Shown here: positions 16,768 through 63,005 of the stretch, in pieces
Layout of the letters: each line of letters begins with the position of its first letter
Numbering within the stretch: position 1 is the stretch's first letter
Assembly (NCBI RefSeq): GCF_000227115.2
Contig: NC_016488.1
Coordinates: 682,001 to 746,000 of the forward strand
DNA from: Naumovozyma dairenensis CBS 421
Taxonomy: Eukaryota > Ascomycota > Saccharomycetes > Saccharomycetales > Saccharomycetaceae
Reading direction: 5' to 3'
DNA length: 64,000 bases
The notes under the pieces: model-generated
Told to the model about the DNA's origin: nothing
Databases searched by the model: none
What the model saw: the letters and a program-made list of their open reading frames with translations, nothing else
Position numbers and translations under genes: made by a program

Positions 16768-19700
16768 ATGTCAACTGAACCAGGAGCTACAGCTCCTCCT
16801 CCAGCTTCTACTGGAGCTCAAGTTCCAAAACCTAAGAAGAAGTCCAGTTCAAAGAACTCTTCTGAAGCATCTCCAGCTCCAGCTGCTGCTGAAGGTGAAG
16901 AAAAACCAAAGAAAAAGAAGAAGGCTAAGAAACCAAAAGCTCCAAAGGACGCTGAAGGTGGTGAAACAGAAACTTCTATCTCTACTGCTACTCCCCCTAC
17001 TAGTGCAGAGGGAGAAAAGAAACCAAAAAAGGCTAAGAAACCAAAGAAAGCTAAGAAGGATTCTGAAGTTAGTGAAGAAGGTTCTGTAACTCCAACAACT
17101 GAAGAAGGTAAAAGTGAAAAGAAATCAAAGAAGACTAAGAAGGATAAGAAACCAAAGAGTACAGCTTCTTCTGAAGCACCAGCCGATAATGAAACTACTA
17201 CTGCTGAAAAGAAGGCTAAGAAGGATTCTGAAGTTAGTGAAGAAGGTTCTGCAACTCCAACAACTGAAGAAGGTAAAAGTGAAAAGAAATCAAAGAAGAC
17301 GAAGAAGGATAAGAAACCAAAGAGTACAGCTTCTTCTGAAGCACCAGCCGAGGATGAAACTACTGCTGCTGAAAAGAAGGCTAAGAAGACTAAGAAGGCC
17401 AAAAAACCAAAGGAAGATAAGAAAGGAACTTCTGTTGCTGCTACCTCTACTTCTGTTCCCGGTACAGCCCCATCCCAATTAAACATCCCAGTTTCAAGTG
17501 AAGCTTTTGATTTAACTCACGTTAAACCATCTAAGGAAGCTCCATCTGAAGAAAAAGATGGTTTCAAATTACACCCAAGAGTTGATTACGGTACCAAAGG
17601 TACTAAAGTTGATATTTTGACTAACCATATCTTAATGGCTGTTGGTGATGATGCCAGTCCCGATGAAAGATCTTCTGAATTGGACCCATGGTGGAAATCT
17701 GCGTTTATCTTCACTTATCGTATTGATTTTAATCCACCTCCTCCATCTGGTCCACGTAGAGGACCTCCACCTGCTTTATCTAAACCAAAAAAATTCGAAT
17801 TATTAGAAGCTTTATTCCATGAAGATGAAACTTTATATAAATATAAAGATCGTATTGCTTTCAATGGTGAAGATACTTTATACTCTCATGTCCCATTAGA
17901 AGAATTCACGTTATTTGATGGCTGTTGGGACGTTAGTAACAAACAAAAAAAGAAGAAGGCTACTGTTGCTGGTTTAAATACAAAATCAGCTGAAGAATTA
18001 GATGAATTAACTTCTCAAATTACATTGAAATTTGTTGCTAAAGTTGGTTTAGCTGATATTTACAAAGCTACCACCTCTAAAAACCCGGAAGAACAAGAAA
18101 ATAAAATGGCTAACACTGATAAAGCTGTCCTATTGTCATTAATGGGTGTTAAATTCTTAAACACTGACGAACAAATTTATCAATTGAACGGTAATAAGTT
18201 CTTCATTTTCAATGAACGTACTATTGCTACTCCTTTCCAAATTGGTGGTTTCTTAATGCATGGTTTCACAGTTTCCTTAAGATATGCGTATGGTTCTGTC
18301 TTATTAAATGCCATCAATGTTTGCTTACCATTCGTTAAATGGACCAAATATTTACCAGGTGATCCTAAATTCAAAGAAAATGCTAAGACTCAATACTCTT
18401 TACTTGATTGGATTATTGAATGTTATCAACAAGCTAATTCAAGAAGAGGACAAAAGCCAAGAGGTCCACCAACTTCTAAGGACATTAACTTTTTTGTCGA
18501 CAAAAATAGAGACATTCAAGATTTATTGAAAGGTTTGAAAGTTTATAGACCTTATATCAACTATAGTGTCAATCCAGATGGTACTCCAAAACCACCAAGA
18601 AGAATGCAACCAAAGGGGATTGTTGGTTTCGCCCGTGAAACACCAGATTCTTTGAAATTTAGAACTTTACCAAGTGACATGGAAAAGAATGGTGTTCCAA
18701 AACAAGGTGAAAAGGAAATCATGGTAACTACTACTGCTTATTTCGCTAAGAAATACGATATTAAATTGAAATACCCAGATGTTAAGATGGTCAGTTTAGG
18801 TGGTAAGAACGTTGTTCCACCTGAATGTTTAATTATTGTTCCAGGTCAAAAATTAAAGGGTATGGTTACAGATGAAAAGGAAATGATTGAATTCACTGCT
18901 TTGAGACCAGAAAAGAAGTTTAGAGCTATCACTAATCTAGCCTTACCAGCTATCAAGAGAGCTTTATCCACTGAAGAAGAAAATGCTAAGGCTCCTCATG
19001 ATACTGAATACAGCTTCTTAAAGGTCCCATCTCGTGTCATTGATGCCCCAGTAGTTCAATTCAAAGATAGTACAGTAGAATATGTTGATAAGCCTTTTGG
19101 TACCAAGAATGGTAAGAACAACCATGAAGAAACAAAAGGTAATTGGAATTTAAAAGAACATGAATTTATTTCTACTCCAGCTGAACCAATGAATTTAAGA
19201 GCCATTTTCATTAATGATTCTGATAATTCTCCGCCACTATCCGTCATGGATGATTTGAAGGCTTCTTTGGCTCAATTCTCTTCTGATGTTGCTGATGTTG
19301 GTGTTCATTTCGACACTAGTCAAGCTCCAATCTTGATTAACAGCTTCAATGCACCAGCTAAGAAAGTTACCGGTGGTGGTGGTAGAGGTCGTGGTAGAGG
19401 CCGTGGTGGTAGAGGTGGCCGTGGTGGCAGAGGAGGTTTCGGTGGTGGCCGTCCAGTTACCACTTGGGAACTTACTCCAGGTGAAGAAAAATTATCTCAA
19501 ATGTTGGAAAAGGTCCCACCAAAGACTTACGTCCTGTTTGTCTTGGGTCGTGCTAATGACTCTGGTATTTACAATAGATTGAAATATTTAGCTGATTTGA
19601 AATATGGTGTTCTAAATAACTGTGTTATTTGGAATAACTTTAGAAAACGTTCAGTTCAATATAACGTTAATGTTGTTATGAAGATGAATTTGAAATTAGG

Positions 19701-20619
19701 TGGTATCAACCATTCTTTGAGTCCAAATGATATATCACTTTTGAAAGAAAAGGAAACTGGTTTACCCTTCTTAGTCTTAGGTGCTGATGTTACTCATTAC
19801 CCAGAAAAGGATCAAAATTCTATTGCTGCCATGGTCGGTTCCTTTGATGATAAATTTGCTCAATTCCCAGGTAACTATTTGCTACAAAGTGGACCTGGTG
19901 AAGAAATCATTGCCGGTATTGGCAACATGGTTTTGAACAGATTGAAATTGTATCAAGAACATAACAACGGTAAATTACCTCCAAAGATTTTATTTTACAG
20001 GGATGGTGTTTCTGAATCACAATTCTCTCAAGTTGTTCAAATCGAAGTTAAAAATCTAAAGGAAACTATTAAGAAAGTAGGTACTAAATTGAATAACGGT
20101 GTCGCATACAACCCACCAATTACTACAATTTGTGTTGTTAAAAGAAACCAAGTTAGATTTATGCCATTAGAAGAAAATGCCATCAATGAAAAGGGTGAAG
20201 TTGCCGCTGTTCAATCATTCGGTAATATTATGCCAGGTACCGTTGTTGATCGTGGTATTACATCAAGTGCTCATTTCGATTTCTTCTTACAATCTCAACA
20301 GCCATTGAAGGGTACTGGTGTTCCATGTCATTACTGGTGTGTCTACGATGAAAACCAATTCGGTTCTGATTACTTACAACAAGTTACTCATGCTTTATGT
20401 TACTTATTTGGTAGATCCAGTACAAGTATTAAGGTTGCTTCCCCAGTTTACTATGCTGATTTGTTATGTGAACGTGCTGCTCAATACTTTAAGGCCAACT
20501 TTGATATTGCTCAATTTGAATTCTCTAAAGAAAGAAAGCACAAAGATGATATTATCCCAGCCGGTAAATTACTACAACATGTCCATGACGAGGTTAAGGA
20601 TATAATGTACTATATCTAA
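16768..20619 (+). CDS. AGO1: Argonaute (budding-yeast Ago1), catalytic tetrad intact
   Basis: A 1283-residue Argonaute. Residues 1 to about 235 are a Lys/Ala/Pro/Glu-rich tail with a 55-residue tandem duplication. N/L1 domains follow, then PAZ (around 650-705, with TAYFAKKYDIKLKYPD and ECLIIVPGQ), MID and PIWI. A Gly/Arg RGG insertion (about 868-895) interrupts the MID region. PIWI shows the DEDD slicer tetrad: D1007 in GADVTH, E1046 in GEEII, D1079 in YRDGVSE, D1231 in YYADLL. All four are present, so slicing is expected. In yeasts that keep RNAi, Ago1 acts with the noncanonical Dicer Dcr1 on siRNAs from repeats and transposons. S. cerevisiae has lost it from between RPL6B and FPR4. Codon use is like its neighbours; no break is seen. 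Confidence 0.97.
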   Translation: MSTEPGATAPPPASTGAQVPKPKKKSSSKNSSEASPAPAAAEGEEKPKKKKKAKKPKAPKDAEGGETETSISTATPPTSAEGEKKPKKAKKPKKAKKDSEVSEEGSVTPTTEEGKSEKKSKKTKKDKKPKSTASSEAPADNETTTAEKKAKKDSEVSEEGSATPTTEEGKSEKKSKKTKKDKKPKSTASSEAPAEDETTAAEKKAKKTKKAKKPKEDKKGTSVAATSTSVPGTAPSQLNIPVSSEAFDLTHVKPSKEAPSEEKDGFKLHPRVDYGTKGTKVDILTNHILMAVGDDASPDERSSELDPWWKSAFIFTYRIDFNPPPPSGPRRGPPPALSKPKKFELLEALFHEDETLYKYKDRIAFNGEDTLYSHVPLEEFTLFDGCWDVSNKQKKKKATVAGLNTKSAEELDELTSQITLKFVAKVGLADIYKATTSKNPEEQENKMANTDKAVLLSLMGVKFLNTDEQIYQLNGNKFFIFNERTIATPFQIGGFLMHGFTVSLRYAYGSVLLNAINVCLPFVKWTKYLPGDPKFKENAKTQYSLLDWIIECYQQANSRRGQKPRGPPTSKDINFFVDKNRDIQDLLKGLKVYRPYINYSVNPDGTPKPPRRMQPKGIVGFARETPDSLKFRTLPSDMEKNGVPKQGEKEIMVTTTAYFAKKYDIKLKYPDVKMVSLGGKNVVPPECLIIVPGQKLKGMVTDEKEMIEFTALRPEKKFRAITNLALPAIKRALSTEEENAKAPHDTEYSFLKVPSRVIDAPVVQFKDSTVEYVDKPFGTKNGKNNHEETKGNWNLKEHEFISTPAEPMNLRAIFINDSDNSPPLSVMDDLKASLAQFSSDVADVGVHFDTSQAPILINSFNAPAKKVTGGGGRGRGRGRGGRGGRGGRGGFGGGRPVTTWELTPGEEKLSQMLEKVPPKTYVLFVLGRANDSGIYNRLKYLADLKYGVLNNCVIWNNFRKRSVQYNVNVVMKMNLKLGGINHSLSPNDISLLKEKETGLPFLVLGADVTHYPEKDQNSIAAMVGSFDDKFAQFPGNYLLQSGPGEEIIAGIGNMVLNRLKLYQEHNNGKLPPKILFYRDGVSESQFSQVVQIEVKNLKETIKKVGTKLNNGVAYNPPITTICVVKRNQVRFMPLEENAINEKGEVAAVQSFGNIMPGTVVDRGITSSAHFDFFLQSQQPLKGTGVPCHYWCVYDENQFGSDYLQQVTHALCYLFGRSSTSIKVASPVYYADLLCERAAQYFKANFDIAQFEFSKERKHKDDIIPAGKLLQHVHDEVKDIMYYI
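17051..17380 (+). repeat. Tandem 165-bp coding repeat in AGO1
   Basis: Two adjacent near-identical 165-bp units (17051-17215 and 17216-17380) encode 55 residues each, rich in KKSKKTKKDKKPK and SEEGS/TPTTEEG motifs. They preserve frame and differ at a few bases, which suggests a recent duplication. Confidence 0.9.
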
Positions 20620-55598: not shown

Positions 55599-56037
55599 CA
55601 AATTTTTGAATCTCTTAAATAATGTAATAAGTACGTACGTATATAGGTCTATGTATAGAACTATTCATTGCTGTTGTTAAAGTCATCAATTTAACGTTAT
55701 ATAAGATATCAGGAAATTGTCATAATGATGGGGAACAGAAAAACACAAACACGTTAAACTTGCTTTATTTGGTTTTTACAGCTGACACAACAGTTGCGGT
55801 TAGTATATAGACAATAATAGAAAGGGTTCCCTTTTCTTTGTTTCCTTTTCCGTTCAATGGAATTGTTCAGTATCCATATTAAATCGTACAATTCACTGAT
55901 CTTCTATTATAGATATGTCATACATAGTTGCACGGTACGTAGTCCTCCGGTTAAATGGCCGGTAACGGAGAGTATTTTTGCTCTACCCGTGTTATGGGAA
56001 AGGGATACATTTTCAAAACCAAAACAGTCACTCCAAT

Positions 56038-56084
56038 ACATCCGTACATTTATTTTTACTTTTTTGGAGAGGAACATCCATACC
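56038..56084 (+). promoter_or_regulatory. Tandem Rap1 sites upstream of RPS4
   Basis: ACATCCGTACATT at 56038-56050 matches the Rap1 consensus fully; ACATCCATACC at 56074-56084 is a second match in the same orientation. Spacing (36 bp) and distance to the RPS4 start (about 330-375 bp) are typical of ribosomal protein promoters. Confidence 0.85.
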
Positions 56085-56413
56085 TTCCCGATGCATTTTT
56101 GTACAGTATCCTGGCGGTGACAAAAGATTGAAGCGAGCGTCGCACAAATTTCCACGGCAAATCCGATAACGGGCTCTGGCCCATACTCGAAACTTCACGC
56201 TTCAATACTGTACGTAGACCTCACACTACGCAGGATTCGCCTTACTAGCTCTAGGAGGAATGGTAATGATGGCTCCCGCTGAGACCAAGAATTAACTAAC
56301 AAAGGACTAGAGGCTATCACGTTAAAGATAATGAATATTGAAAAATTTCATATTATTAAACAAAATGTAAAAGTGACTTAGAATACCCATAGAAATCAAT
56401 CACTAAAATAAAG

Positions 56414-57522
56414 ATGGCTAGAGGACCGTATGTTTAAAATTACGATTTTGTGAAGAGAACGAAAAAAATAGAGATTTGAAATTATTGCCGCATCGATAAG
56501 TGGGAAGAGAGATAAAGTAGAAGAATTGATGGATTAAAGATCAAAATAGAAATGAGAAAATTTAAAGACTGATACACGGCTGTATTGAAAAGAATAATTG
56601 TTAATTGGTATAAAATGAACTACTAGAGGCAATAATATCTATTTTAATAATACAAGAAAATAGACCAAAAAACAACAACAGAAGTACTAACAAAAACACT
56701 GAAAATAATATTATTATATTATTATAATCAACAAATTTTTTTTAAAATAGAAAGAAGCATCTAAAAAGATTAGCAGCTCCACACCATTGGTTATTGGACA
56801 AATTATCCGGTTGTTATGCTCCAAGACCATCTGCTGGTCCACATAAATTACGTGAATCTTTGCCATTGATTGTCTTCTTAAGAAACAGATTAAAGTATGC
56901 TTTAAACGGTCGTGAAGTCAAGGCTATCTTGATGCAACGTCACGTTAAAGTCGACGGTAAAGTTAGAACTGATACCACTTACCCAACTGGTTTCATGGAT
57001 GTCATCACCCTTGAAGCCACTAACGAAAACTTCAGATTAGTTTACGACGTTAAAGGTAGATTCGCAGTTCACAGAATTACTGATGAAGAAGCCTCTTACA
57101 AATTAGCTAAAGTCAAGAAGGTCCAATTAGGTAAGAAAGGTGTTCCATACGTTGTTACCCATGACGGTAGAACCATCAGATACCCAGATCCAAACATTAA
57201 AGTTAATGACACTGTCAAGGTCGATCTAGCTTCTGGTAAGATTACTGATTACATCAAGTTCGATGCTGGTAAATTAGTCTACGTTATTGGTGGTCGTAAC
57301 TTGGGTAGAATTGGTACCATTGTTCACAAGGAAAGACATGATGGTGGTTTCGATTTAGTCCACATCAAGGATTCATTAGATAACACCTTCGTCACCAGAT
57401 TAAACAATGTTTTCATCATTGGTGAACCAGGTAAGCCATACATCTCCTTGCCAAAGGGTAAGGGTATTAAATTAACCATTGCTGAAGAACGTGACAGAAG
57501 AAGAGCTCAACAAGGTTTATAA
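56414..57522 (+). CDS. RPS4A: 40S ribosomal protein eS4 (spliced)
   Basis: Two exons, 56414-56427 (MARGP, last codon split) and 56751-57522, give 261 residues, the yeast Rps4 length, with the intron after the second base of codon 5, as in S. cerevisiae. Sequence is almost identical to Rps4 ([20 protein letters not shown], ending [10 protein letters not shown]). Highly biased codons. An ORF search alone starts it at 56794, an internal non-ATG position. Neighbouring BAT2 and PMT4 fit YJR145C, though RPS4B on chromosome VIII is the ohnolog. Confidence 0.97.
56428..56750 (+). other. Spliceosomal intron of RPS4
   Basis: GTATGT at 56428, TACTAAC at 56685-56691, 3' site TTTAAAATAG ending 56750. 323 bp, phase 2. 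Confidence 0.93.
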
Positions 57523-58245
57523 ATAAATCTGCTAACTTCTCAATCCCAATTCTTTCCCGATTTTGTAGATCTACGTAGTTTCATATAATAATACATAACA
57601 TTTAAAACACAATAATAAAAATAAGAATAAAAAAAATAAAAATAAAACAACTAACCAGTGTGTTACTGTCAAATATAGTCTATTATTTCTGAGGACTAAC
57701 ATAACGTTCTTTCATCTGCTATTTAATTATTCACGTCAACAAAATTACACAGCAAGAGAATAAATGACCCTATAGCCCATTGTTTATTTTTCCTTTTATG
57801 ATTTTACATTAACGAGTCAATTCAAAACTAAGCAGCTAGCAAAATATCATAAAACAACATAAATAAAAATTCAAAAACCTAAAAACTCTTCTTGAGAACA
57901 GAAACTTGTTCTCAAGAAGAAGTTAACGGATTCAGATTGATTAGCCATCTTGAAGTTTAAAGATAATATAGTATAATTGATAATGTGATTTTCTACACAC
58001 CCTATTTAAAAATAACTAAAAAAAATAAAATAATACAATTGTACATACGAAATTAGGGAATGGTCTTTCCATTTTGTCGTGTGTTTATATACAGTTTAGG
58101 ATTGTGATCTAAGTTTATTATTCATGGAATACTGATTTGCAACAACAGGTAACGAAGCTAAATCAAGAATTAAAGTTTCAATTTTGTTTGTAGTTACTAC
58201 CAAAATAATTTCCCAAGCGCTTAAAATAATATCAAATATTACTAT
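57523..58245. other. RPS4 3' flank with strong hairpin
   Basis: 723 bp, AT-rich. Contains a perfect 14-bp inverted repeat with a 6-nt loop (arms 57887-57900 and 57907-57920, left arm TCTTCTTGAGAACA). No gene seen. Confidence 0.55.
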
Positions 58246-59048
58246 TTAGCTGAACGTGGTCAGCTGATTGAATGCAGAATCGTCACAACCTTCAAAATTT
58301 GATCCAAATGTTCTACATTGCTCAAGAATTAACTTACCAGTAGACATAAGCTGTCTCCAATTCCCACTCACATAATCATTGTAATCAATGATCCCAATAT
58401 CACAGTAGTAAGAACCTAAAATATTACCAGATTGCTCACTAACTTGCCTCCACATATCGTCCCAGTCATATTGGCTAGTCAGATAGTGATTATCTGGATA
58501 GCAATAATTGTATTTAAGACCTTCCCCTAAATCAACAATTTCACTAAGATTCTCATCACGTTTCGTCAAGGCTGCATTTCCATATACCTTATGATAATGC
58601 TTCAAAGAAACGAAAGTACTGTTATCATTTATGGTTGCGTTCACAGCGAATGCCGGAAAATGGTCCTCTCTCCGCAATAATAGAGTTCAGATTTTCTTCA
58701 CTCCTTGGAAGAACAGCCACGGCAACTAATGCTGAGACAGCTAAACCAGTCATTAATAGTGCCAATATCGCTGACAATGCACAGGAACGGCCAGAGTATG
58801 CACCGTTGTCTCCCTCAGTATCTAGACATTCATCTGAGAACGTATCACACTTCACTGCTGCATCACTAGAAGCAGCTAAACCTCCTGATAGAAGCCCCCC
58901 ACCAAACAAGACTAAAAGCACGTTCCTCTAGAGTTCCGTCATCACCGTCATCACTGTAACTAGTAAGTAATGTTTTACCTTCCCATGTCATGCATGGCCC
59001 AACATTAACCGCGTCACAGGATGGAAAGGAGGTACTTCGGTATAACAT
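58246..59048 (-). pseudogene. Frameshifted K1-type killer-toxin relic
   Basis: Three overlapping minus-strand frames (59048-58866, 58921-58625, 58677-58246) look like one protein broken by two frameshifts: one near the run of six C at about 58895-58901, one near 58640-58680. The middle part has two hydrophobic segments (about 58921-58870 and 58780-58706) around a Cys-bearing hydrophilic loop, as in the pore-forming subunit of K1-like toxins. The last part has a Kex2-type Lys-Arg (58558-58563), then a Cys/Trp/Tyr-rich domain ending with NFEGCD near its C-terminus, a signature I associate with K1. Such chromosomal K1-like genes are known in Kazachstania and Naumovozyma. No signal peptide is clear. 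As read, it cannot make the full toxin; sequencing error at the homopolymer is possible. Confidence 0.6.
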
Positions 59049-60197
59049 ATCTTTACCAAAACATCATCTTCACATAAGTTAGAGATTACAGCATCCATTT
59101 TCGTTTGAGTTTCTGCAATTACAAATTAAAGATGACTTGCCAGTGTTGATAATGTTGATAAGCCTTTCATTTTAGACAGATGAAATAAAAGTAAGAATAG
59201 TGAGTAGAATGTTCAGTAATATTAGAGTAGTGACTAATGGATCACTCATTCTTGATACAATTATAAATAGGAGTTATATAAACAAAATAATCAGCAGAAT
59301 CAATTTTAATATTCCTGTATTCAACTTGCTTTTTATACTTATCGCTTGGGCTTTTTTTTAACCCAGATTTGTTCTGGTTGCATATCTCTTTTGTTGTTTT
59401 CCTAGTTCAGGAATCGTTCTAAAACAATGGCCAAAAAATTAAGTGGCTTCTTAATGTCATTGCCATGTAAGACCAAAAGGCGATTCAAAAAAGCTTTCGC
59501 GCTCATCGACTTTTGGTCTAAAACGGGCCAAAAAATGTGCCAAAAAACGTGCCAACTTCTGTCCTACCCGGGTAATGTTACATTCTTCTGTATTTTATGC
59601 AAAAACTTATACTAACTGTGTAACGCAGAGGCCTGGTTTTTCAAAAGCCATTTTTCTAATGAGGTGAATTTTATGCAAAGCTGTGCAAGAGGGTCCATAT
59701 TTTGTGAAAACAGCGGGCGGGAAATGTTTCACCTCACCCCTACTCCGTTTGTAGGAATTTGAAAATACCTTTACACGGTGCCTTTCACACTAATTAACTA
59801 GTCATTTTAAAAATATTTTAGATATATATCTGTACCCCCAATCCTTCCCTCCCTCCAAATTTATGGTGCTACCCCGGTCTCAACCCCAAAATTTTTAATC
59901 CAATCCGACCCCATGCCCAACCCCTCCCATGTCTGGGGGTGAAAGGTATTGATCCACTTTTTGGTCCATTCAGAACCAATGTTGCATCAGGCAAGAAAAA
60001 ATTGAAAAAATTGAAAAATTTGAAAAAACTCTAATTTAGGGTAAAGTTCTTGGGTCACCAGGGTCTGTTAAATGTTACAAGAATAAAAAACGAATTTTCT
60101 TTCAGACCTTATTTTTACGTTAGCACTACACATAATTTACATAGACATAGACATAGACATTTAATTTAAGAGTTTTATACAGAACACAGTCAAAAGT
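59049..60197. other. Gene-poor stretch between toxin relic and PMT4
   Basis: 1.15 kb. Contains a CGGGTAA Reb1-like site near 59570, an intron-3'-end-like TACTAAC...GCAG at about 59611-59632 with no matching 5' site, and an ATAGAC hexanucleotide tract (about 60138-60160). A 62-codon ORF at 59427-59615 has no family features. MGM101 occupies this interval in S. cerevisiae but is not seen. Confidence 0.35.
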
Positions 60198-60383
60198 TTA
60201 GTTACAAAGCAGGCGGGTTCTCTTGACAAGGGTCTTCATCAAAGAGGTTGGAAAAAACCGTATATTTGGATCTGCAGGAGGAAGAAGTGGTGGTTGTTTA
60301 CTGGACAATGAAGCAGAAGGAACTGTATCTTGAGGATATATGTTATCGTATGCATCCTGTAAATCATCATTAATGAAATTCAT
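60198..60383 (-). CDS. Small hypothetical ORF, 61 residues
   Basis: Opens at ATG (MNFINDDLQDAYDNIYPQD) and ends LVKRTRLLCN. Composition is protein-like, with a Pro-rich middle (SKQPPLLPPADPN). The frame stays open nine codons further upstream (with two Cys), so it could be a remnant or a 3' exon of something larger, but no splice acceptor pair is convincing. No family recognised. Confidence 0.25.
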   Translation of the reverse strand: MNFINDDLQDAYDNIYPQDTVPSASLSSKQPPLLPPADPNIRFFPTSLMKTLVKRTRLLCN

Positions 60384-60713
60384 CCAGCAATCCTGCTTGT
60401 TTCTGCATCGTTATATAAAGTTGTTAAGTTTCTGGAGGTATTCTACTAGTTTTAAATGTGGTTATTAAATTTTTTTTTGTCGTGGATTTACAACTAATTG
60501 TGGTGTATAATTATTCATAGTATAGTATATACATGTCTGTCCAAATTAACGCAACGCGAAAGTTGAAACCGAACAACTTTCCATTTATTGAAACATTTTT
60601 TAACTTACATGAACACGTCAGTAACTTCTCTATACAAAAGATCTTTAATATCGTCAAAACCTTTATAATCTTATCAAATAACGCTGTAGGTATAATACCA
60701 AACTCGAGAAAGT
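60384..60713. promoter_or_regulatory. PMT4 upstream region
   Basis: 330 bp before the PMT4 ATG; includes a poly-T run near 60470. Overlapping ORFs here are shadows or chance. Confidence 0.3.
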
Positions 60714-63005
60714 ATGGCAGCTTCCAAAAGGCACAGTGTGAAATCGGTGTCACCACGCATCGACGTGGACGATCAATTATTCAAATATACAAAAAGTAAT
60801 GGATCTAAATCTTTCGAACAAATAGCGCAAAACTGGTTATTGAAACCATTACCAGATTCTCAAGTTAAGTATTCCTTTTGGTTATACGCGGTTACATTAA
60901 TTGCATGTGTTGCAAGATTTTACATGATTTGGTACCCAAATGAAGTCGTTTTCGATGAAGTCCATTTCGGTAAATTTGCATCATATTATTTAGAAAGAAC
61001 CTATTTCTTTGATGTTCATCCTCCTTTTGCCAAAATGGCCATTGCATTTATCGGTTGGTTAGTAGGTTATGATGGATCTTACAAATTCGATGACATTGGT
61101 GATAGTTATGAAACGCATCCTGCTCCATATATTGCCTACCGTTCATTCAACGCTATATTAGGTACTTTAACCGTTCCAATCTTATTCAATACTTTGAAAG
61201 AACTGAATTTCAAAGCTATAACTTGTGCATTCGGTGCCTTGTTAGTTGCTGTCGACAATGCCCATGTCACAGAAACAAGATTGATCCTATTAGACGCAAT
61301 CCTTTTAATTTCTATTGCAAGTTCATTCTATTGTTTTGTTCGCTTTTACAAGAGCCAATTAACTTCTCCATTCTCTTTACAATGGTACACTTGGTTATAT
61401 GCCACAGGGATCTCATTATCTTTCGTCATTTCTACTAAATATATTGGTGTCATGACTTATTCTGCGATTGGTATTGGCATTATCGCCAATTTATGGCAAC
61501 TTTTGGATATTAGAGCAGGTTTAAGTTTGAAGTTATTTACAAGACATTTTAGTAGAAGATTAAATGGACTAATTCTCATTCCTTTTTGTATTTATCTATT
61601 CTGGTTCTGGGTTCATTTTACAGTTCTAAATAAATCCGGTCCAGGTGATGTCTTCATGTCTGCAGAATTCCAAGATACTTTAGGTGACTCTCCATTGAGT
61701 ATTGGTTCCAAACAAGTCAATTTTTACGATATTATTACAATCAAACATACTGACACAAACGCTTTCTTACATTCTCACTTGGCTTATTACCCATTACGTT
61801 ATGAAGATGGTCGTGTTTCTTCAGAAGGTCAACAAATCACTGGTTACATGCATGAGGATATCAATAACGAATGGGAAGTTTTACCAGTTAAGGAATTACC
61901 TTCTACAAAAGGTCAACCAGTCTTACTGAATGATAAAATTAGGTTAAGACATGTCAGTTCAAATACCTTCTTATTAGCGCATGACGTTGCATCTCCACTT
62001 TATCCAACAAATGAAGAAATCACAACTGTCTCTGAAGAAGATGCAAACGGACCAGCATATAAGGAAACCATTTTTGCCTTCCAACCATTGAAGAAAACTG
62101 ATGAAGGTTATGAAATTAGAACGAAGAACACACAATTCCGTATCTTCCATGTTGAAACAGCTGTGGCCTTATGGACTCACAATGACGAACTATTACCAGA
62201 ATGGGGGTTCGAACAGCAAGAAGTGAACGGTAGTAAAGATGTAGTTAACCCTGAAAATCATTGGGCTATAGAAGCTATCACTAATCTTGATGATGAAAGA
62301 AAAGTTTACACTCCGAAAGTAACCAAGAGTATGTCATTTTGGTCAAAATGGTTCGAATTACAAAACTCGATGTTCGAACATAATAACAAACTTTCCGCAG
62401 AACATCCATTTGCTTCTCAACCACAAAGTTGGCCAGGTGGGCTATGCGGAGTTTCATTTTGGACTTCAGATTCTCAAAGAAAACAAATTTTCTTTACTGC
62501 CAATATCGTTGGTTGGTGGATACAAGTTATCTCTATGGCTGTTTTTGCTGGTATTATTTTAGCTGATTTAGCAACCAGACAACGTGGTTATTTTGCCCTT
62601 GGTAAAATCACTAGAGAGAAATTATATGGTCCATTATTATTCTTATTCCTCGGATGGGCATGTCATTATTTCCCTTTCTTCTTAATGCATCGTCAAAAGT
62701 TTTTGCACCATTATCTACCGGCTCATATGATCATATCTCTATTTACAGCTGGGTTATGGGAAGTTATCTTCAGTGATTGTAAATCTCTAGATCCATCTAT
62801 CGATGAAGAAGAAGCAGGTGCCAAATATAATGAATGTCCAAAGATCTATACGCCATTATTAGCCATTTTCTTCATAGTTTCATCAGTTGCCATTGTTTGG
62901 TTCTTCATCTATTTCGCTCCATTAATTTATGGTAATGTTTCCCTACCACCAACTGAGGTAGTAAAGAGACAATGGTTCGATATCAAACTAAACTTTGCCA
63001 AATAG
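60714..63005 (+). CDS. PMT4: Protein O-mannosyltransferase Pmt4
   Basis: 763 residues; S. cerevisiae Pmt4 is 762. Start MAASKRHSVKSVSPRID; multiple membrane helices at both ends; the lumenal loop-1 motif DEVHFGKFASYYLER and FDVHPPFAKM define GT39. Three MIR repeats (about 330-520) fill the central lumenal loop, and the C-terminus keeps HYFPFFLMHRQKFLHHYLPAH. It moves mannose from dolichol-phosphate-mannose to Ser/Thr of mainly membrane-anchored proteins in the ER, acting as a homodimer. The N-terminal SLKYTK-like LFKYTK and overall sequence pick Pmt4 over Pmt1/Pmt2 groups. RPS4-PMT4-YJR142W order matches chromosome X. Confidence 0.96.
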   Translation: MAASKRHSVKSVSPRIDVDDQLFKYTKSNGSKSFEQIAQNWLLKPLPDSQVKYSFWLYAVTLIACVARFYMIWYPNEVVFDEVHFGKFASYYLERTYFFDVHPPFAKMAIAFIGWLVGYDGSYKFDDIGDSYETHPAPYIAYRSFNAILGTLTVPILFNTLKELNFKAITCAFGALLVAVDNAHVTETRLILLDAILLISIASSFYCFVRFYKSQLTSPFSLQWYTWLYATGISLSFVISTKYIGVMTYSAIGIGIIANLWQLLDIRAGLSLKLFTRHFSRRLNGLILIPFCIYLFWFWVHFTVLNKSGPGDVFMSAEFQDTLGDSPLSIGSKQVNFYDIITIKHTDTNAFLHSHLAYYPLRYEDGRVSSEGQQITGYMHEDINNEWEVLPVKELPSTKGQPVLLNDKIRLRHVSSNTFLLAHDVASPLYPTNEEITTVSEEDANGPAYKETIFAFQPLKKTDEGYEIRTKNTQFRIFHVETAVALWTHNDELLPEWGFEQQEVNGSKDVVNPENHWAIEAITNLDDERKVYTPKVTKSMSFWSKWFELQNSMFEHNNKLSAEHPFASQPQSWPGGLCGVSFWTSDSQRKQIFFTANIVGWWIQVISMAVFAGIILADLATRQRGYFALGKITREKLYGPLLFLFLGWACHYFPFFLMHRQKFLHHYLPAHMIISLFTAGLWEVIFSDCKSLDPSIDEEEAGAKYNECPKIYTPLLAIFFIVSSVAIVWFFIYFAPLIYGNVSLPPTEVVKRQWFDIKLNFAK

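What the first reader, a model, noticed from the sequence alone, without database searches (positions are those of the whole stretch)
58246..59048. Decayed chromosomal K1-type killer toxin gene near an active-looking AGO1
Three minus-strand frames together show the K1-like plan: paired hydrophobic segments, a Kex2-type cleavage site and a C-terminal domain ending with NFEGCD. Budding yeasts with RNAi are known to lack dsRNA killer viruses, so a chromosomal copy would be one way an RNAi-positive lineage could carry a killer trait; here it appears to have decayed.
Basis: partly seen in the sequence, partly recalled or inferred. Interest (0 to 1): 0.75.

Follow-up and report, generated by a model that had tools for sequence, protein, structure and literature searches.

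The report
Broken yeast killer-toxin gene relic
A short stretch of a budding-yeast chromosome looks like the decayed remains of a gene for a secreted antifungal killer toxin, a kind of gene and of decay already described in this species.

Summary
The genome is Naumovozyma dairenensis CBS 421. No frame matches a Pfam or NCBIfam family and no second copy was found in the genome. Against K1-like (KKT) genes of the same genome the third frame is the best of 6,701 frames outside the family, but weakly (E 0.62; 9 of 5,000 shuffles reach it, the second frame 102, the first 1,074). Cysteine spacing differs from K1 and KKT. Most likely it is a decayed, Kex2-processed killer protoxin of the K1 superfamily, nearest to KKT, between RPS4 and a PMT gene beside a Ty-type LTR. 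Chromosomal KKT genes and pseudogenes in RNAi-positive yeasts, this species included, and the RNAi argument itself, were published in 2021 (PMC7888664). The locus does not fit the positions given in the parts of that text I read, so it may be an unlisted pseudogene. AGO1 is 37.6 kb away and shows no link. Ordinary in kind; modest interest.

The parts
58246..58686 (-). frame C: open frame with gamma/beta-type features (KR at 58558-58563, four cysteines after it, FEGCD at 58282-58296)
   Evidence: gamma/beta profile score 8.4 bits, 9 of 5,000 shuffles reach it
58625..58927 (-). frame B: alpha-type features (weak hydrophobic stretch, three cysteines, strong hydrophobic helix, then LPR)
   Evidence: alpha profile: 102 of 5,000 shuffles reach it
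58866..59063 (-). frame A: LEERAF (58914-58931) and LVWWGASI (58887-58910), resembling motifs of NDAI_0C01080 and NCAS_0G00110
   Evidence: profile score not above shuffles (1,074 of 5,000)
59126..59170 (-). short frame starting MKGL, a candidate start of the relic, ended by a stop
   Evidence: inference from length (about 308 codons to 58246)
59172..59249 (-). short hydrophobic frame starting MSDPL, a second candidate signal-like start, ended by a stop
   Evidence: mean hydropathy 2.34
57907..58119 (-). fragment (positions 74-281 of 281) of a dispersed Ty-type LTR, 126 bases downstream of frame C, same orientation
   Evidence: L004 copy has a 5-base duplication
56932..57522 (+). flanking gene, ribosomal protein S4 family
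60714..63005 (+). flanking gene, protein O-mannosyltransferase (PMT4 by recalled gene order)
16768..20619 (+). AGO1, whole, 37.6 kb away; not part of the relic

Best explanation
A pseudogene of a secreted, Kex2-processed killer protoxin of the K1 superfamily, nearest to the KKT (K1-like) genes of the same genome. The ancestor would have run signal-delta-alpha-gamma-beta from about 59170 to 58246: an alpha part with hydrophobic segments and a cysteine loop that attacks the target yeast's membrane, a gamma part removed by Kex2, and a beta part for cell-wall binding. It now lies in three or more frames with stops between them and is expected to make no toxin. It probably came in separately from the subtelomeric KKT copies, or long ago, and sits in a rearranged interval next to a Ty-type LTR. 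Shown: frames, motifs, position, LTR, no second copy found. Inferred: homology, ancestral function, route of entry.
For: Architecture. Frame C ranks first outside the family among 6,701 frames with whole-length and with gamma/beta profiles (E 2.2 and 0.62); 9 of 5,000 shuffles reach its score; 0 of 94 real frames of similar length reach its pairwise score to P0001, 1 of 94 to P0002. Motifs shared with the family in frames A and C (chosen after the fact). Length from 59170 about 308 codons, P0001 307 and P0002 311. The species is known to carry KKT genes and pseudogenes (PMC7888664).
Against: No E-value below 0.6 over all frames. Frame A does not beat shuffles; frame B scores as well with the gamma/beta profile (104 of 5,000) as with the alpha profile (102). 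Frame C shows nothing with P0003 and P0004 (64 and 84 of 94 real frames score as high) or with the C4 and C5 C-terminal pieces (P 0.21-0.87). Cysteine spacing differs. The pattern for FEGCD occurs three times in the genome and so does its backward control.
Confidence: 0.68

Rival explanations
1. A relic of another family of the same superfamily (K2/KHS with DUF5341, K45 or K74), or of an undescribed one, rather than nearest to K1/KKT.
For: Cysteine spacing does not fit K1/KKT. A single alpha disulfide before the hydrophobic helix and a late beta disulfide are described for K2, K45 and K74-type toxins (PMC13211469 and PMC13404059). The genome holds four DUF5341 places.
Against: No DUF5341 match in the frames. 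Against two K2-like loci, frame C with the matching C-terminal parts P 0.56-0.93; the lowest values are for non-matching parts (frame A with the C9 C-terminal piece 0.027-0.028, frame C with the C9 N-terminal piece 0.056-0.138). K45 and K74 were not available for comparison.
Confidence: 0.15
2. Chance: unrelated short frames in a long intergenic stretch that only look like the plan.
For: Weak statistics throughout; 12 of 1,000 shuffles give a frame as long as C; codon usage near background.
Against: Frame C is the best non-family frame in two profile searches, the locus is richer in G+C than its flanks, and several features occur in the expected order.
Confidence: 0.12
3. A live killer gene that only looks broken because of assembly errors or an intron.
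For: Frames A and B overlap at a run of equal bases, a common site of sequencing errors (general knowledge).
Against: At least three changes of frame and further stops upstream; the only splice-like 5' motif found lies inside frame C and none of the branch-point motifs scanned was present. No matching annotated protein was found for frame C.
Confidence: 0.04

Closest known systems
KKT (K1-like killer toxin) genes of N. dairenensis, e.g. NDAI_0G00100 (P0001) and NDAI_0C01080 (P0003); the KKT label is inferred
   Same: Likely length, dibasic sites, hydrophobic alpha part with cysteines, some motifs, pseudogene state of several copies
   Different: No DNA similarity, weak protein similarity, other cysteine spacing, internal site 41 kb from the contig end and no tRNA gene found in the window
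K1 toxin of S. cerevisiae M1 satellite
   Same: Four-part plan; FEGCD-like end (recalled, not tested)
   Different: Encoded on a chromosome, broken, other cysteine spacing; K1 itself was not compared
K2/KHS (DUF5341) family
   Same: Similar plan; chromosomal members such as KHS1 are known (PMC13404059)
   Different: No DUF5341 match and no convincing similarity to two K2-like loci of this genome

Membership tests
K1/KKT family | Sequence similarity to members | tested here: inconclusive
   Frame C 9, B 102, A 1,074 of 5,000 shuffles; E 0.62 over 6,701 frames
K1/KKT family | Three cysteines in alpha as C-x2-C-x10/11-C between hydrophobic segments | tested here: not met
   Three cysteines between hydrophobic stretches, but C-x6-C-x14-C against K1 C92, C95, C107 and P0001 C66, C69, C80
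K1/KKT family | Three cysteines in beta, the first two as C-x8-C | tested here: not met
   Four cysteines at 59, 92, 121, 131 of frame C; K1 C239, C248, C312; P0001 C224, C233, C303
K1/KKT family | Kex2 sites between parts | tested here: inconclusive
   LEER-AF in frame A, LPR in frame B, TKR in frame C; no second dibasic site before the end of frame C, so gamma and beta cannot be told apart
K1/KKT family | One whole open frame | tested here: not met
   Three or more frames with stops; pseudogenes are known in the family
K1 superfamily | Fold with a central hydrophobic helix wrapped by beta strands | not tested
K2/KHS (DUF5341) family | DUF5341 domain | tested here: not met
   No match in the frames; four other places in the genome
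Captured dsRNA satellite | Satellite marks: 5' GAAAAA near the start, DPA motif downstream | tested here: not met
   No GAAAAA on the minus strand of 58901-59500; no DPA match in the window with up to 3 mismatches. Old capture could have lost them.

The most novel reading that the evidence does not exclude
The locus is the only trace of a separate, old acquisition of a killer gene from a branch of the K1 superfamily not yet described (own cysteine pattern), captured at an internal chromosomal site with Ty help and since lost in an RNAi-positive yeast.
Probability: 0.2. Interest if true: 0.4.

Novelty: new member of a known kind. Interest (0 to 1): 0.22.

Why it matters
If homologous, it adds one internal, divergent pseudogene to the record of gain and loss of killer genes in yeasts that kept RNAi, and shows that nucleotide searches with known KKT genes can miss such relics. 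It opens no new question.

Tried and rejected
Rejected: relic of MGM101, which by recalled S. cerevisiae gene order belongs between RPS4A and PMT4; the only Mgm101 match in the genome is an open frame on contig C4. Rejected: recent duplicate of another locus of this genome. Rejected: NdKKT2 of PMC7888664, placed by the paper on chromosome III; that is most likely NDAI_0C01080 on C3 (the match to the paper's name is inferred). Two scans of IMG/VR, with frame C and with a KKT alignment, gave no relative. The pattern for FEGCD gave three places in the genome, and its backward control also three; around the two others (L037, L038) no frame of 60 codons or more on the matching strand covers the motif. 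Papers that hold the species name but were not read: PMC11017505 (one search failed) and PMC5499181.

Full report
What is there. The window is C10:682001-746000 of a 13.5 Mb, 11-contig genome; C10 has 782,356 bases. A protein read from C7 is identical to NDAI_0G00100 of Naumovozyma dairenensis CBS 421, on a contig of the same length, so the genome is that strain. The locus is C10:740,246-741,048, 41.3 kb from the contig's end. They overlap, so the exact place of the breaks is not determined. Upstream there are two candidate starts, at 59170 and 59249, each ended by a stop. From 59170 to 58246 is about 308 codons.

More than chance? In 1,000 dinucleotide shuffles of the 3,191-base interval, 12 had an open frame of 146 codons or more. 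G+C is 41% in the locus and 33% in the window. Codon usage says little: frames A, B and C score -0.127, 0.002 and -0.022; C beats the other five readings of its stretch clearly, B only narrowly (next -0.016), and A is narrowly beaten by one (-0.123) (the script stopped before giving the values of real genes).

Direct family tests. None of the three frames matches Pfam or NCBIfam. Against solved structures, frame C met two antibody chains at E 0.6 and 0.89 and frames B and A nothing up to E 10. A search of frame C against 5.8 billion proteins found no candidate, although the collection holds N. dairenensis proteins. Frames A and B were not searched there. No second copy was found by protein (frames C and B) or DNA; these searches score only the best candidates.

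Relatives for comparison. A broken gene in the left subtelomere of C4 (L025, 12264-13274) led to others: C7:263-1183 (whole, P0001); C5 about 1178525-1179538 and C6 about 1135509-1136441 (broken); a piece at C3:1529118; C3:214540-215290 (P0003, NDAI_0C01080); C8:997466-998074 (not fetched). P0002 of Arxiozyma heterogenica and P0004 of N. castellii also belong. That these are the KKT genes of PMC7888664 is inferred from species, length, plan and the member on chromosome III; no tool printed that name.

Comparison, with results for and against. (24 comparisons, two matrices each, 1,000 shuffles): frame C with the C7 protein P 0.011-0.012, with its C-terminal part 0.005-0.010; with the C4 and C5 C-terminal pieces 0.21-0.87; with the C5 gamma and alpha pieces 0.09-0.25; frame B with the C5 alpha piece 0.019-0.029, otherwise above 0.15; frame A nothing below 0.35. 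(12 comparisons): frame C with P0001 P 0.006 and 0 of 94 real frames of similar length as high, with P0002 0.049 and 1 of 94, with P0003 and P0004 64 and 84 of 94; frame A with P0003 0.02 (17 of 1,623) and P0004 0.037 (42 of 1,623), the other two above 0.79; frame B 0.052 at best (24 of 379). Profiles over 6,701 frames of 25 codons or more from the window and 26 fetched stretches (L011-L036, not the whole genome): whole-length profile, frame C E 2.2, best outside the family; gamma/beta profile (two sequences), frame C E 0.62, again best outside the family; alpha profile (six sequences), frame B 255th and frame A 1,928th. Taken singly, frame C has E 9.3e-5 with the gamma/beta profile, but 9 of 5,000 shuffles reach its score, which is the fairer figure. 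The six shuffle counts (of 5,000; shuffles below the reporting limit count as lower): alpha profile A 1,074, B 102, C 588; gamma/beta profile A 2,783, B 104, C 9. B is thus no more alpha-like than beta-like by this measure.

Motifs. LEERAF and LVWWGASI in frame A and GNAALTKRDEN in frame C resemble LEKRAF of P0003, VAWWGAFI of P0004 and GNSLVKRDEN of P0001. Five patterns were counted in the 6,701 frames: LEERAF-type 1, WWG-type 2, GN..KRD-type 3 and FEGCD-type 1, all in the locus or the family; KRD[EQ]N 4, one of them in an unrelated frame. They were drawn after seeing both sides, so they illustrate and do not test. The site in frame C fits the Kex2 site inside gamma by sequence and the gamma/beta site by distance to the end.

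Against K1/KKT membership. Cysteine spacing differs in both parts (frame numbers; K1 positions from passages of PMC6739482; P0001). K1-family toxins have six cysteines split evenly between alpha and beta (PMC13211469 section 14 read); here the C-terminal part has four. I therefore do not file it as a KKT member; it looks as if it worked like a K1-superfamily protoxin and is nearest to KKT. K2 membership is tested and not met: DUF5341 lies at four other places, and two of those loci, compared (12 comparisons, two matrices each), gave no low value for matching parts. How the ancestor worked (membrane attack by alpha, wall binding by beta, gamma removed, immunity from the precursor) is carried over from K1 (PMC13211469 sections 14 and 17; PMC6739482 passages).

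Surroundings. The locus lies between an RPS4 gene and a PMT gene. The order aminotransferase-RPS4-locus-PMT recalls S. cerevisiae BAT2-RPS4A-MGM101-PMT4 (gene order recalled; families). The only Mgm101 match is on C4, so the locus is not its relic and the interval is changed in this lineage. A Ty-type LTR (positions 74-281 of 281) lies 126 bases downstream in the same orientation; the L004 copy shows TGTTG...AACA ends and a 5-base duplication. This suits the retrotransposon route proposed in PMC7888664 (section 22), but solo LTRs are common and it proves nothing. ARAGORN with its bacterial setting found no tRNA gene in the window and Rfam none in 56000-61500, unlike the two internal KKT genes of the paper.

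RNAi. AGO1 is whole and aligns to KpAGO (4f1n) over residues 258-1283. RNase III domains occur at five places, four over the cut-off, which suits RNT1 plus at least one Dicer (inference).

What is known. Of PMC7888664 I saw abstract, passages and sections 18, 19, 20 and 22. It reports 24 KKT genes and 14 pseudogenes in six yeasts including N. dairenensis, an active NdKKT1, and the argument that RNAi may explain genomic killer genes and few dsRNA viruses, with T. delbrueckii as an exception. It says that only two of the 38 lie away from the subtelomeres (about 20 kb from the ends), the N. dairenensis one on chromosome III. The present locus, on the tenth contig and 41 kb from its end, is not that one, so the text seems not to count it; its tables were not readable here. 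Of PMC13404059 I saw passages and section 12, of PMC7021474 one passage. Paper searches made: (several lists were cut); in the listed titles and abstract starts I saw nothing on this locus.

Verdict. A decayed killer-type protoxin gene: about 0.85 for some member of the superfamily, 0.68 for nearest to KKT. No function expected today. New member of a known kind, modest interest.

Noticed in passing
L042 (C3:214540-215290), P0003 NDAI_0C01080: The internal KKT-like gene carries two alpha-type domains in tandem and no gamma/beta part in its 271 residues.
   Followed up: partly
G000 C8:1002021-1002494, C9:6824-7288, C7:10013-10477, C2:119128-119409: Four DUF5341 (K2-family) places in the same genome, one with a stop inside; the genome has both K1-like and K2-like loci.
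   Followed up: partly
G000 C5:2419, C11:19035, C11:184561, C8:77465: Four RNase III matches over the cut-off, two of them within 20 kb of a contig start; perhaps more than one Dicer-like gene.
   Followed up: no
L034:4840-6475 minus (C10 right end): A secreted-looking 207-residue frame with dibasic sites and a shorter frame beyond it; no Pfam match.
   Followed up: partly
window 59483-59543: A 60-base dispersed repeat with copies on C7, C2 and C3, upstream of the locus.
   Followed up: no
L019:2511-6320 minus (C9 left end): A 1,269-codon subtelomeric frame that looks like a Y'-type helicase (recalled resemblance), next to a DUF5341 locus.
   Followed up: no
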